Source of the DNA: a virus
Strand: one strand, 5' to 3'
IMG/VR virus record: IMGVR_UViG_3300027749_000299
Span: 1-34,769 of that record
DNA length: 34,769 nucleotides
The position numbers and the translations under genes were made by a program. The notes under the pieces were generated by a model that did not search any database, was not told where the DNA came from, and saw only the letters and a list, made by a program, of their open reading frames with translations. Positions 135 to 30,306 of this stretch are shown here, one piece after another. Every line of letters begins with the position of its first letter. Position 1 is the stretch's first letter.

Positions 135-1560
<1,426 letters not shown>

Positions 1561-22408: not shown

Positions 22409-22412
22409 ATGA
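22119..22412 (+). CDS. Possible overlapping gene, 97 aa, inside transglycosylase frame
   Basis: A 97-codon frame (MKKSVTIKHSHSVTLTLVMG ... FIFAETGIK) that lies wholly across the transglycosylase catalytic region in another frame. It has GAAGG six bases upstream and ATGA overlaps at both ends, with the previous gene (22119-22122) and with the methyltransferase (22409-22412). That is the junction style of this operon, but the protein has no recognised family and the domain-bearing frame is the other one. It may be a true overprinted gene or a fortuitous open frame. Confidence 0.3.
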   Translation: MKKSVTIKHSHSVTLTLVMGGKEEKAPVLSAFGPVRAGLTTTQRTNEDRALTELLNTLEREVATLVSKSYAVLDTFNTDTSHLVEPSDFIFAETGIK

Positions 22413-23242
22413 TTACAGGTGTATCTCTATTCGCAGGGGTAGGCGGCTTTGACCTAGCTATGGAACGCAACGGAGTTAATGTCGTTGCTAATGTGGAGAT
22501 TGACAAACATTGTCAGGCTCTATTGGAACGCAAGTTCCCTAATGCAAAACAATTTAATGATGTAACAACAGTAAAAGGAAAGGACTTAATAGATGTCGGA
22601 TTTAATCCAAGCAGAGGAATTATTACAGGAGGATTTCCCTGCCAAGACCTCAGCGTTGCTGGCAAAAGGGCTGGCTTGGCTGGCGAACGAAGCGGGTTAT
22701 TTTGGGAAATTGCCCGAATTGTGGAAGAAACGCAAACAGAGTGGTTCATACTCGAAAACGTCCCTGGTCTGCTATCCAGTAACGAAGGAAAAGATTTTGG
22801 AGTTGTCCTCGGGACGATGGCAGACCTCGGGTATTCTGTTGCCTGGCGCACTCTTGATGCTCAATACTTCGGAGTTCCCCAACGCCGGCGCCGTGTATTC
22901 ATCGTTGGCAGACGTACTGCAGGGCAAGGAGGTCCAGAAGAAGTTTTATTTAAGCCCCAAAGCTTGCGAAGGAATACTAAGACGAGCCAACCGCAGAGGC
23001 AAGACACTTCCACCAGCGCTGCAAAAAGCTTTGGTCAATCAAGTTTCGCAGGATATACCGAAGGAGTAACTACTCTTACTGCTACTTCATATAAAAGACC
23101 TGAAGATAATGTAGTTGTAACTTCATCATCTTTTGGTGGATACGTCGAAGGTGTTGGAACTTTACGAGCTAATGGTGGTGATTTAGGTGGAGGAAGTGAA
23201 AACCTGGTGGTTCACCAAGGGAAGACGAGCGCAGACGAATGA
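22409..23242 (+). CDS. C5 cytosine DNA methyltransferase, N-terminal part (frameshifted)
   Basis: The catalytic portion of a DNA (cytosine-5) methyltransferase, 277 residues. Motif I is LFAGVGGFDLA (residues 7-17), motif IV TGGFPCQDLS with the nucleophile Cys78, motif VI ENVPG (116-120), motif VIII QRRRRVFIVG (158-167). A target-recognition region follows with two related segments (FAGYTEGVTTL and FGGYVEGVGTL). The frame stops at 23240-23242 before motifs IX and X, which continue one frame over. Phages use such enzymes to shield their DNA from host restriction. The frame also overlaps a second ORF (22593-23069). Confidence 0.9.
   Translation: MITGVSLFAGVGGFDLAMERNGVNVVANVEIDKHCQALLERKFPNAKQFNDVTTVKGKDLIDVGFNPSRGIITGGFPCQDLSVAGKRAGLAGERSGLFWEIARIVEETQTEWFILENVPGLLSSNEGKDFGVVLGTMADLGYSVAWRTLDAQYFGVPQRRRRVFIVGRRTAGQGGPEEVLFKPQSLRRNTKTSQPQRQDTSTSAAKSFGQSSFAGYTEGVTTLTATSYKRPEDNVVVTSSSFGGYVEGVGTLRANGGDLGGGSENLVVHQGKTSADE
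22593..23069 (+). CDS. Overprinted 158-codon frame inside the methyltransferase gene
   Basis: A second open frame of 158 codons, shifted one base from the methyltransferase, with GGAAAGGA eight bases before its ATG. Its C-terminal half reads MLNTSEFPNAGAVYSSLADV and then FYLSPKACEGILRRANRRGK and TLPPALQKAL. I recall this LSPKAC.GILRRA..RGK.LP pattern from ORFs annotated next to or within phage C5 methyltransferases. It may be a conserved overprinted protein or a shadow that recurs because the methyltransferase beneath is conserved. No catalytic motif is visible. The memory-based match is not verified. Confidence 0.4.
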   Translation: MSDLIQAEELLQEDFPAKTSALLAKGLAWLANEAGYFGKLPELWKKRKQSGSYSKTSLVCYPVTKEKILELSSGRWQTSGILLPGALLMLNTSEFPNAGAVYSSLADVLQGKEVQKKFYLSPKACEGILRRANRRGKTLPPALQKALVNQVSQDIPKE

Positions 23243-23612
23243 AGATTATGAAACGTGGATCGAGGGGGGGGTAGTGCCAACTTTGAACGCCTTTGATTGC
23301 GGAGATATTAGAGCCACTACTATTATCTTTTACGGTAACCGAGTAGATGATATACGAATACAGGATGACAAGATCAATACACTTCAAGCTAGGATGGGGA
23401 CAGGAGGAAACAATATGCCATTGGTAAATAACAATGAGATTGTCCGTAGGCTCACACCGCTAGAGTGTGAAAGACTCCAAGGCTTTCCTGATGAATGGAC
23501 TGAGGGCCAAGCAGACACTCACCGTTACAAACAAATGGGAAACGCCGTAGCAGTACCAGTAGTTGAATGGATCATCCAAGGTATCTGTGATACATTTACC
23601 CCAGCAGGGTAG
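23187..23612 (+). pseudogene. C5 methyltransferase C-terminal part, displaced by a +1 shift
   Basis: This frame supplies the missing end of the enzyme: NEDYETWIEGGVVPTLNAFD, a segment ending LQARMGTGGNNMPLV, motif IX RRLTPLECERLQGFPDEWT and motif X MGNAVAVPVVEWI. Its own GTG at 23187 has no convincing ribosome-binding site, so it reads as the tail of the upstream gene after a frame change between about 23205 and 23240. Removing one A in the GACGAATGAAGA stretch would restore one continuous protein. Sequence error, recent mutation and programmed +1 shifting are all possible; an 8-G run at 23264-23271 lies just after the break. Confidence 0.8.
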
Positions 23613-27830: not shown

Positions 27831-28214
27831 TTATCTAACCCAGACGGTATCGCACTTATCTGCTGCACCCTTTGGTGCTGCACACATCCAACCCTTCCAA
27901 GGACCCTTAGTGCCTTGGCCTGAACGGAAACTCATTGTGCCGTGCTTACATTGTGGAGCGCTATCTCCACCTGGAGGTGCTGCTTGTACTGGAGTAGCGT
28001 TGAATTGTGCTGCGATTGATTCAACAGTTGGAGCAGCAGCTTGTACTGCACCACCGGTAAGTTCTTTACCAGTTGACTTAATTAAAGAAGCAACCATTGC
28101 AAGATCAGTTAAACCTGACTCAAGATCTTGTACATCTTTTGCATATAAATTGATAAGAGTTCCATCAAATAACTTGTAATTGATTTGGTACTTTGTTGTA
28201 TCCGGTGCAGCCAT
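27831..28214 (-). CDS. Hypothetical protein with C-terminal zinc-finger-like region, 127 aa
   Basis: A 127-residue protein: strand-rich N-terminus (TTKYQINYKLFDGTLINLYA), helix with AMVASLIKST, Pro/Ala linker, then QCKHGTMSFRSGQGTKGPWK and GWMCAAPKGAADKCDTVWVR, with Cys/His spacing fit for zinc. The C-terminal CKHG.M..R.G....KGW.C..PK....C pattern is frequent in actinobacterial phages beside recombination nucleases. One-base overlap with the Cas4-like gene supports a functional link, perhaps as a single-strand-DNA or recombination partner (inference). Confidence 0.72.
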   Translation of the reverse strand: MAAPDTTKYQINYKLFDGTLINLYAKDVQDLESGLTDLAMVASLIKSTGKELTGGAVQAAAPTVESIAAQFNATPVQAAPPGGDSAPQCKHGTMSFRSGQGTKGPWKGWMCAAPKGAADKCDTVWVR

Positions 28215-29173
28215 TACTTATCTCCTTTTCGTTTAACAGATAATCTAATTGATTCCTGTCCCTGCTTTTGTGGAACAAAACCGAGGAGTCTCTCCACTTC
28301 CTCGGTATCTACTCGAGTAGCACCTGCAGCCGCAGTCCACTTAACCACTACGCCATAGTTAGTTACTCCAGTAAAACCTTCCAGCCCTGACTTTATAGCA
28401 TCCTTCTGTGTTGTCAAATCCTTAATCTTTTCATCTAATTCCAAGTAAAGTAAAGACAACTTATCCACTTCTGGATTATCTATCTTTGGTAATGTCTCAC
28501 CCTTAAACGGTTCTTTTTTTATACCAACGCATCCCATCTCACCTGATGCGTCATAGTACTTACAATAAGACTGGCAGAATGATGCAAACTTTTCTGGATC
28601 TGGTGCTGTATCCATAGCTTTAATATCAGTAAGCCATTTCAAAGCCTCTTCTGCAATAGCAGGATCATAGGCTTCTGAATGTATTAAAACATCTCGTTCA
28701 TCACCATCACGGGCTATGGCTACAAGGTTGACAGTTTGGGGCTTCCCCGTCCCCGACTTTTCTAACAAGTAGCCATAGACCTGCACTTGCCACCGCTGCT
28801 GAATTGAAGGAAAGTAAGACAAGTTAGTTTTCTTAACTGTCTTCCAATCCACAACCGCACCGGATTCTGGTATCCACAAATCAATGTGGGCCTTCATATC
28901 ACCGAACTCTACTTCTTGCTCTACTACATACTTCTCACCAGTCGGATCTTCTAGGGCTAGCGCCTCTTCAATCGTGGCGTGAATGGCAGTTCCCATAATG
29001 GCAGCGAGCTTTAACTCGTTGTTATTAGTTTCTGGTTGATCGTTAAGCCGATACCAAACCTTGCGCCGGCAACCACCCAACTCTGATGGGCCAACCTGCT
29101 TCTGTGTCGAGCGAGATCTAGTTGCATCCTTGGCTCGTAATACTTCTAGTAATAATTCTTTAGGATCTTTCAC
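28214..29173 (-). CDS. Cas4/RecB-like PD-(D/E)XK exonuclease with Fe-S cysteines
   Basis: A 319-residue nuclease. An N-terminal GGCRRKVWYRL cysteine and a C-terminal group (FCQSYCKYYDASGEMGC) give the four cysteines of an AddB/Cas4-like iron-sulfur cluster. The catalytic core is IHATIEEAL (His), AHIDLWIPESGAVVDWKTVK (Asp, then D-W-K) and QVQVYGYLL (Gln/Tyr motif). The GTG at 29173 is chosen because GGAG sits upstream and it overlaps the previous stop (GTGA); a TTG at 29200 would add nine residues. No CRISPR array or other cas gene is present, so recombination or host-DNA degradation is likelier than adaptation. Confidence 0.85.
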   Translation of the reverse strand: MKDPKELLLEVLRAKDATRSRSTQKQVGPSELGGCRRKVWYRLNDQPETNNNELKLAAIMGTAIHATIEEALALEDPTGEKYVVEQEVEFGDMKAHIDLWIPESGAVVDWKTVKKTNLSYFPSIQQRWQVQVYGYLLEKSGTGKPQTVNLVAIARDGDERDVLIHSEAYDPAIAEEALKWLTDIKAMDTAPDPEKFASFCQSYCKYYDASGEMGCVGIKKEPFKGETLPKIDNPEVDKLSLLYLELDEKIKDLTTQKDAIKSGLEGFTGVTNYGVVVKWTAAAGATRVDTEEVERLLGFVPQKQGQESIRLSVKRKGDK

Positions 29174-29310
29174 CAAGATCTCCGTTCGATACCGACCCAA
29201 AAAAATACTAGATCTAAATCTAAACTAAACATAGTTATCTGAAATCCTACTGATATAGAACGATTACGCAAACCTGCGGTAAATAACCATCTACCCTTTT
29301 CAACCCACAT
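29170..29310 (-). CDS. Small aromatic protein, 46 aa
   Basis: Forty-six codons starting MWVEKGRWLFTAGLRNRSIS and ending WVGIERRSW, with GGGGATAATA upstream. Alternating hydrophobic and charged residues suggest a beta hairpin or amphipathic membrane association. A four-base overlap with the Cas4-like start supports its reality. An upstream in-frame start at 29379 would lie inside the peptidase gene and is rejected. Function unknown. Confidence 0.6.
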   Translation of the reverse strand: MWVEKGRWLFTAGLRNRSISVGFQITMFSLDLDLVFFWVGIERRSW

Positions 29311-29312
29311 TA

Positions 29313-29885
29313 TTATCCCCGTTTCTGTAGTTCTACCTGAATTGGTAGCCCTGTGTTTACATCGAAAATAGTCGCACACTTAACTGCATCAGTCAAGAAC
29401 ATTTGTGCCGAGTCCGTGTCCCATTCATATTCAGTCGTGGCATCCTTCATTGCCCATAGGTAGCCCATAGCAAACTGTCCACCGGTTCCAAGTCCATACA
29501 TCCCGTAGTCTGACTGGATAAAGGACATATCGCAAGCTATATGAAATAGGTGACCGTTAAAAGCTATCAGGTAATCAAAGCCTGATTCTTTATCAGCCCT
29601 GTCCCACGTGTAGTTACCATCGCTAAATGCTCGCACAATACTGGGGATAACCTTGCGACCCATATGTTGTACTGGATCATCGGCTGGCTTAAAAGCAGGT
29701 GGGTTCCAGTTGTAAGCAAGGATATCTCCTGGTCTTGAATCACCTACTATGCCTATTAAATACTTACCTCGAGTAAGAATCTTTGGCGTTTTAGTTGAGA
29801 TAGTTATTAGATTATCTTCTGTAATTTGTGAGTCAGCAGCGAGGACAACGAAGCCGTCACCTTGGTATCCTGTAAGTGTGGTCAT
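29313..29885 (-). CDS. HslV/proteasome-like Ntn hydrolase (threonine peptidase)
   Basis: A 190-residue protein that lines up along its length with HslV and proteasome beta subunits. It starts M-TTLTGYQGDGFVVLAAD; removal of Met would expose Thr1, the catalytic nucleophile, with Asp17 at the conserved position and Lys34 (TPKIL) near the Lys33 position. The GLGTGGQFAMG motif (about residues 128-138) matches the family's GSGG loop, followed by a helix and DVNTGLPIQV. The N-terminus is not preceded by a propeptide. It could be a self-compartmentalising peptidase acting on host or virion proteins. First gene of the minus replication operon. Confidence 0.85.
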   Translation of the reverse strand: MTTLTGYQGDGFVVLAADSQITEDNLITISTKTPKILTRGKYLIGIVGDSRPGDILAYNWNPPAFKPADDPVQHMGRKVIPSIVRAFSDGNYTWDRADKESGFDYLIAFNGHLFHIACDMSFIQSDYGMYGLGTGGQFAMGYLWAMKDATTEYEWDTDSAQMFLTDAVKCATIFDVNTGLPIQVELQKRG

Positions 29886-29900
29886 ATGTGAAGTCTAACA
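29884..29900 (-). promoter_or_regulatory. Candidate leaderless promoter of the replication operon
   Basis: On minus, TAGACT TCACAT ATG puts a TANNNT -10 six bases before the ATG of the peptidase gene, and there is no ribosome-binding site in between. That is the usual look of a leaderless actinobacterial transcript whose first base is the A of ATG. No confident -35 was seen. Confidence 0.45.
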
Positions 29901-30014
29901 CGACACGCCACGAAGTCCCTTATTTCTCATACTAGGCGTTTCGGTGATTACAATATGAGCCGTAAGGCGAATTAAACGGTCAGCCCTCTCGGGCTGGTAG
30001 AAGAGAGGCAGTCT

Positions 30015-30239
30015 GTGTGGCTCCGTCTACCATCCCTGCGTAAAACTAAACGCCTTCCAGAGCGTTTTGGAACCGATTTAAGGGCATTCGGTCCAGTCCA
30101 CGCCTGCTCCTGTGGGTCAAAAACATTCTACATTGCAGCAGCTTTTGATGACTATGAGATCGCTTGGTACCACCTTGACGCCGAATGCGTCAACTGTGGC
30201 AACCTAGTAATAGTTCCCTGCCCTTTAGACAAACCGTAA
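30015..30239 (+). CDS. Isolated zinc-ribbon protein, 74 aa
   Basis: The only plus-strand gene in this half of the window. It starts at a GTG with AGAGAGG upstream; the product is MWLRLPSLRKTKRLPERFGT, then FGPVHACSCGSKTFYIAAAF and ECVNCGNLVIVPCP. CSCG and CVNCG form a zinc ribbon separated by a strand pair. A CAGCCC/GGGCTG hairpin (29981-29996) lies in the leader, and TACAAT at 29949 is a weak -10. It ends just before the lysis terminator stem. The solitary opposite-strand position suggests a separately timed regulator. Confidence 0.72.
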   Translation: MWLRLPSLRKTKRLPERFGTDLRAFGPVHACSCGSKTFYIAAAFDDYEIAWYHLDAECVNCGNLVIVPCPLDKP

Positions 30240-30248
30240 AACGGCATA

Positions 30249-30279
30249 AAAAAAGAAGCCCACCCCCGAAGGGATGGGC
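30249..30279 (-). terminator. Intrinsic terminator after the lysis genes
   Basis: On minus, GCCCATCCC (30279-30271) pairs with GGGGTGGGC (30266-30258), one G-U pair, around a UUCG tetraloop, followed by TTCTTTTTTT. This is a textbook terminator after the holin. Its stem starts 18 bases after the plus-strand zinc-ribbon stop, so it may also end that transcript. Confidence 0.88.
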
Positions 30280-30306
30280 CTTTAGTGCCTCGCAGTAAGA
30301 GTTTGG

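What the first reader, a model, noticed from the sequence alone, without database searches (positions are those of the whole stretch)
29313..29885. Phage-encoded HslV/proteasome-like peptidase with an exposed Thr1
The protein begins Met-Thr-Thr and keeps Asp17, a lysine at the Lys33 region and the GTGG loop, so it looks catalytically competent and needs only Met removal. No ATPase partner (HslU, Mpa/ARC) is seen nearby. It sits first in the replication operon beside a nuclease, unlike a prohead protease, which would sit beside the capsid. A role in remodelling host protein turnover is possible.
Basis: partly seen in the sequence, partly recalled or inferred. Interest (0 to 1): 0.75.

Follow-up and report, generated by a model that had tools for sequence, protein, structure and literature searches.

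The report
Phage proteasome-like protease in swappable slot
This freshwater virus of actinobacteria carries a single-gene relative of the proteasome's cutting subunit with a fully conserved active site; related viruses that lack it carry an unrelated putative zinc protease in the same spot, as if each virus needs one protease of some kind, although the likely host bacteria have no proteasome at all.

Summary
The protein (190 aa) is a proteasome-like Ntn peptidase: Thr1, Asp17 and Lys33 are invariant in 298/298 phage homologues diverged to about 22% identity. A confident AlphaFold2 model (pLDDT 91.7) matches BPH first, then HslV and 20S beta. It is not HslV proper: 20.6 bits against a cut-off of 137.

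New here. (1) The likely host order, Nanopelagicales, lacks every proteasome-like protein in 118/121 genomes, and Mpa/ARC or HslU reached cut-off in 0/10 each. (2) Relatives without the gene carry a small HExxH putative metallopeptidase instead, in the same slot under the same promoter element. The two families never co-occur (0/43 and 0/18 records), exchange at two sites, and switch at least 5-7 times on a DnaB tree. (3) The gene also sits after the portal in related phages, including cultivated Planktophila phage LanE43-AprE7, while Streptomyces relatives with the same capsid genes have neither protease.

Best reading: a self-sufficient Thr peptidase supplying a proteolytic function interchangeable with a zinc peptidase. 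It is neither a host-proteasome remodeller nor an obligatory capsid protease. The substrate is unknown.

The parts
29313..29885 (-). CDS of the proteasome-like Ntn (N-terminal Thr) peptidase, 190 aa
   Evidence: ORF; PHROG_1040 E 7e-21; AF2 model pLDDT 91.7, best PDB matches BPH/HslV
29880..29882 (-). codon of Thr2 = catalytic Thr1 after removal of the initiator Met
   Evidence: invariant in 298/298 homologues
29832..29834 (-). codon of Asp18 = catalytic Asp17
   Evidence: invariant 298/298
29781..29783 (-). codon of Lys35 = catalytic Lys33 (TPKI motif)
   Evidence: invariant 298/298
29478..29489 (-). GTGG loop (residues 133-136); Gly133 and Gly135 in 297/298, residue 134 Ser/Thr in 296/298
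29901..29909 (-). conserved promoter/operator element GGCGTGTCG
   Evidence: 8-nt core in 121/133 HslV-like and 31/37 metallopeptidase upstream regions against 3/936 control ORFs; positions. In this window alone its copy number is not above chance
29892..29897 (-). -10-like TAGACT 6 nt before the ATG; no Shine-Dalgarno, so probably a leaderless transcript
   Evidence: sequence and relatives with the same layout; start site inferred, not measured
30245..30280 (-). terminator-like hairpin plus T-run behind the lysis cassette, separating it from the peptidase gene
   Evidence: read from the sequence
30015..30239 (+). small divergent ORF that flanks the slot on its upstream side in most relatives
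28214..29200 (-). PD-(D/E)XK (Cas4/RecB-like) nuclease, downstream flank of the slot
   Evidence: Pfam PF12705 2e-9, PF01930 2e-6

Best explanation
The gene encodes a catalytically active proteasome-like peptidase. Host methionine aminopeptidase removes Met1 and exposes Thr1, which with Asp17 and Lys33 cleaves peptide bonds (inferred from fold and invariance). It works without a dedicated AAA+ partner, probably as a self-assembled ring like BPH or as a small specific peptidase (inferred). Its task is a phage-provided proteolytic step that a small HExxH zinc peptidase can also supply, so each phage of this lineage keeps one or the other (exclusivity and repeated exchange shown; functional equivalence inferred). 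The likeliest task is cutting one or a few specific host or phage proteins during infection, rather than bulk ATP-driven degradation or obligatory capsid maturation.
For: Catalytic residues invariant in 298/298 down to ~22% identity. Model pLDDT 91.7, pTM 0.88; BPH rank 1, TM 0.73-0.75; BPH is reported to have no known unfoldase (PMC8665760). Likely host order lacks PF00227 in 10/10 and 118/121 genomes, with the search ringing in 10 of 14 control genomes; Mpa/ARC 0/10 and HslU 0/10 over cut-off. One copy in each of 26 records. Displacement: same slot and same flanks in loci L433-L469, same upstream element; metallopeptidase in 0/43 peptidase records with 5/5 positive controls; peptidase in 0/18 metallopeptidase records. 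Second site: L408 peptidase versus L470 metallopeptidase directly after primase, neighbouring genes 77-88% identical. 7 state changes on the DnaB tree, at least 5 forced by well-supported branches. Portal-ascertained records with the slot covered: 10 peptidase, 4 metallopeptidase, 0 empty.
Against: No activity, expression or oligomer data. The metallopeptidase is called such only from HExxH and weak Pfam hits (DUF6782 just above cut-off; SprT and M78 below it). Exchange at one slot could also happen at an accessory-gene hotspot without shared function. The DnaB-tree rows were chosen because they carry one gene or the other, and DnaB may recombine apart from the slot. Streptomyces relatives have neither gene, so the function is dispensable in some hosts. 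The window phage's own host is inferred, not known.
Confidence: 0.58

Rival explanations
1. Structural-module protease: it processes virion proteins (scaffold, portal or the giant internal protein) during head assembly; the early-module copy is merely relocated.
For: In branch B and in cultivated phage LanE43-AprE7 the gene lies directly after the portal and before the conserved virion genes; sister C loci show the same. Other phages use unrelated proteases for maturation, and zincin-like metallopeptidases have been proposed for this in jumbo phages (PMC7824862).
Against: Streptomyces phages Immanuel3 and Abafar have homologous TerL, portal and major capsid protein but neither protease. In branch A and at the post-primase site it is among early genes with its own promoter. 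The metallopeptidase sits only in non-structural positions in the loci seen.
Confidence: 0.17
2. Unrelated cargo at an accessory-gene hotspot: the slot takes up different useful genes and the exclusion of the two proteases is coincidental.
For: The gene is movable (three sites); phage hotspots are common (general knowledge); the Streptomyces relatives have neither protease.
Against: All 14 portal-ascertained records with the slot covered hold one of just two families, both putative peptidases. Exclusion also holds when the two genes sit at different sites, and the same two families exchange again at a second site.
Confidence: 0.13
3. It docks onto a general host AAA+ unfoldase (e.g. ClpX or ClpC) and degrades selected proteins processively, a phage-made ATP-dependent protease.
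For: HslV-type fold; ClpX-sized partial HslU-model hits are present in the hosts searched.
Against: No docking element shown; a ~110-aa metallopeptidase replacing it would not be expected to form such a machine; HslU and Mpa/ARC were not found in the hosts searched.
Confidence: 0.07
4. Protein-ligase or amidohydrolase activity rather than a protease (as connectase, a proteasome-like ligase).
For: Proteasome-like homologues include the ligase connectase (PMC8665760); no activity is known here.
Against: The model keeps both helices before residue 90 that connectase lacks; exchange with an HExxH putative peptidase argues for hydrolysis.
Confidence: 0.05

Closest known systems
BPH (betaproteobacterial proteasome homologue, PDB 5OVS/5OVU)
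   Same: Best sequence-profile and fold match over the full length; Thr1/Asp17/Lys33 register; no propeptide; no known unfoldase
   Different: About 20% identity; phage-borne; quaternary structure unknown; BPH is a bacterial double heptamer (PMC8665760)
HslV (ClpQ)
   Same: Fold, Thr-Thr N-terminus, GxGG loop, catalytic triad
   Different: 20.6 bits against the NCBIfam cut-off 137; 190 aa; no HslU in the phage window or in the hosts searched
PPH and AAH, phage-associated proteasome homologues (Fuchs, Alva, Lupas 2021)
   Same: Proteasome-like proteins encoded by tailed phages, compact subunit, no AAA+ partner found
   Different: PPH is ~140 aa and lacks helix H2; this one is 190 aa with H2.
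PHROG_1040 'peptidase HslV family'
   Same: Same phage protein cluster (E 7e-21)
   Different: Annotation by name only; no context or function known
DUF6782 / PHROG_1233 HExxH protein (the displacing gene)
   Same: Same slot, same promoter element, same neighbours, mutually exclusive
   Different: Unrelated sequence: putative zinc peptidase of ~110 aa

Membership tests
Proteasome-like (Ntn) family | N-terminal Thr nucleophile with Asp17 and Lys33 in register | tested here: met
   298/298 invariant
Proteasome-like (Ntn) family | beta-sandwich core flanked by helices H1-H4 | tested here: met
   AF2 model pLDDT 91.7; PDB matches to BPH/HslV/20S
HslV | score above curated HslV equivalog cut-off | tested here: not met
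   20.6 against 137 bits and 18.7 against 157.75 bits
HslV | partner HslU | tested here: not met
   none seen in the window; 0/10 host-order genomes over cut-off
BPH | closest sequence and fold similarity | tested here: met
   but only ~20% identity, so not filed as BPH
BPH | double heptameric ring | not testable with these tools
   no multimer prediction available
PPH (phage proteasome homologue) | ~140 residues, lacks helix H2 | tested here: not met
   190 aa; helices 50-58 and 71-89 in the model; definition from PMC8665760
AAH | membership of the AAH sequence cluster | not testable with these tools
   reference sequences not held; the compact form without C-terminal helix is compatible
20S proteasome beta subunit | paired alpha subunit gene and Mpa/ARC ATPase | tested here: not met
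   one copy per record; no Mpa/ARC over cut-off in 10 host-order genomes
Prohead maturation protease | required with its cognate capsid module | tested here: not met
   absent from Streptomyces phages sharing TerL, portal and MCP
Prohead maturation protease | cleavage of virion proteins | not tested
   needs virion proteomics

The most novel reading that the evidence does not exclude
A proteasome-like threonine peptidase and an unrelated HExxH zinc peptidase are functional stand-ins for one another in an abundant freshwater actinophage lineage. The phage imports a stand-alone proteasome-like enzyme into hosts that have lost every proteasome-like protein, and uses it to cut a specific target early in infection.
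Probability: 0.42. Interest if true: 0.85.

Novelty: new variant of a known kind. Interest (0 to 1): 0.64.

Why it matters
Phage proteasome homologues have been catalogued, but the authors of the main survey found no genomic context or partner that hinted at function (PMC8665760). Here the context does: the gene is interchangeable with a putative zinc peptidase at two sites, under a shared promoter element, in phages of bacteria that lack proteasomes. That makes a testable statement about function (swap and complement). A cultivated phage-host pair that carries a homologue exists (Planktophila phages LanE43-AprE7 and -AprF5 on 'Ca. Planktophila' LanE-43, PMC10202952), so the question can be tested directly.

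Tried and rejected
Plus-strand reading (stops). HslV proper (below cut-offs). Host proteasome hijack (host order lacks it). Obligatory prohead protease (Streptomyces relatives). Defence or anti-defence family: no PADLOC match for either protein. Narrow-pattern genome scan found nothing; 201 host-order genomes hold no homologue (which had no positive control of its own); 1 of 397 Actinomycetota genomes holds a distant 261-aa homologue (L519). First AF2 model with 15 sequences was poor (pLDDT 44), replaced by the 66-sequence model. Three records that seemed to lack both genes (G239, G241, G244) end before or lack the slot, so they are not counterexamples. The metallopeptidase profile matches no PDB chain.

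Full report
OBSERVATION. The ORF 29313..29885 is real but runs on the minus strand: 190 aa, starting MTT. PHROG_1040 'peptidase HslV family' matches at 7e-21. The Pfam Proteasome score for this single protein is just below cut-off (21.7 against 22.4 bits), but 60 of 66 relatives match Pfam Proteasome at E<=0.01.

ACTIVE SITE AND FOLD. In 298 homologues from viral contigs, with identity to the window protein down to ~22%, Thr1, Asp17 and Lys33 are invariant (298/298), Gly47 is 295/298, and the G-[ST]-G loop is kept. All begin Met-Thr (or GTG/TTG-Thr; two have ATC at that codon), so Thr1 would be exposed after Met removal; no propeptide is seen. The AlphaFold2 model from 66 sequences has pLDDT 91.7 and pTM 0.88. 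The first PDB match is BPH (TM 0.73-0.75), then HslV and 20S beta subunits; sequence profiles give the same order or nearly so. HslV equivalog cut-offs are missed by far. The known phage homologues are PPH (about 140 aa, no helix H2) and AAH (PMC8665760). This protein is not PPH by size and H2; whether it is AAH cannot be tested here. That survey reported no Actinobacteria-specific phages with AAH, and no genomic context hinting at function.

PHAGE AND HOST. WhiB (PF02467) marks an actinophage. The portal is 50% identical to that of the cultivated Planktophila phages LanE43-AprE7/F5 and about 42% to Streptomyces phages. AprE7 itself encodes a 33%-identical homologue. Its host LanE-43 and nine other Nanopelagicales-type genomes have no PF00227 protein at all. 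In 121 genomes of the order only 3 have one, as alpha/beta-like pairs. Mpa/ARC and HslU models gave only sub-threshold hits in the 10 genomes searched, in open frames of the size of FtsH and ClpX (that identification is my inference). The window phage's own host is inferred, not shown.

LOCATION. In the window's relatives (branch A) the gene lies between the lysis cassette plus a small divergent ORF, and the Cas4/RecB-like nuclease-replication genes. In branch B (including AprE7) it lies directly after the portal. Records carry exactly one copy in 26 of 26; one branch-C record carries two. In the window a terminator-like hairpin (about 30280-30245), a divergent ORF and a promoter with no ribosome-binding site, -10-like hexamer 6 nt before the ATG, make it a separate and probably leaderless unit. 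An element GACACGCC/GGCGTGTC occurs upstream in 121/133 branch-A genes against 3/936 control ORFs.

DISPLACEMENT. Records with a close portal but no peptidase gene carry at the same slot a ~110-130 aa protein with invariant HExxH (DUF6782 'putative metallopeptidase' above cut-off; SprT and M78 weaker). Its upstream region has the same element in 31/37. Among portal-ascertained records with the slot covered there are 10 with the Thr peptidase, 4 with the HExxH protein and none empty. The HExxH profile rings in 0/43 peptidase-bearing records and in 5/5 positive controls. The peptidase profile rings in 0/18 HExxH-bearing records (the same profile rang in 25 of 32 records). Exclusion also holds when the genes sit at different places: after the portal for the peptidase, after the primase for the HExxH protein. 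At the post-primase site L408 has the peptidase and L470 the HExxH gene between neighbours that are 77-88% identical. On a DnaB tree of 81 rows the state changes 7 times, at least 5 forced by strongly supported branches. Caveats: tree rows were chosen for carrying either gene, and DnaB may recombine.

MECHANISM. Shown: fold, invariant catalytic residues, genomic exclusivity, shared promoter element. Inferred: Met removal, peptidase activity, functional equivalence to a zinc peptidase. If a ~110-aa zinc peptidase can stand in, the shared task is probably limited cleavage of specific proteins rather than ATP-driven bulk degradation. A capsid-processing role is less likely because Streptomyces phages Immanuel3 and Abafar share TerL, portal and major capsid protein but carry neither protease. 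Patchy host-directed peptidases, including SprT-like ones, have been proposed in jumbo phages (PMC7824862), which is compatible.

VERDICT. An intact phage proteasome-like peptidase, a new branch of a known kind. The new part is its context: one-or-the-other exchange with a putative zinc peptidase, in phages whose likely hosts lack proteasomes.

Noticed in passing
L416:15159-15557, L418:11923-12264, L433-L469: Small HExxH putative metallopeptidase (DUF6782/PHROG_1233) that replaces the peptidase gene; its own function is unknown.
   Followed up: yes
L470-L512: The same HExxH family sits directly after the primase gene in another phage lineage; L408/L409 have the proteasome-like gene there instead.
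   Followed up: partly
window 29901-29909 and relatives: Conserved GACACGCC/GGCGTGTC element in either orientation upstream of the slot gene, in leaderless-type promoters; the protein that reads it is unknown (phage sigma factor or WhiB are candidates).
   Followed up: partly
L012/L013 (ATC start) and L042, L066, L067, L076 (TTG start): Some homologues have TTG or even ATC where the Met codon of Met-Thr-Thr should be.
   Followed up: no
window 135-1226: Collagen-like protein (Pfam Collagen 2e-34), probably a fibre.
   Followed up: no
window 22409-23242: C-5 cytosine DNA methylase on the plus strand, with a likely second piece at 23187-23612.
   Followed up: no
L338 contig (G246: 5255-5773 and 43658-44221): One 52.7-kb viral contig carries two proteasome-like homologues.
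   Followed up: no
L519:1501-2286: Single Actinomycetota genome with a 261-aa proteasome-like protein starting MTLVVGF, possibly a chromosomal AAH/DAH-type homologue.
   Followed up: no
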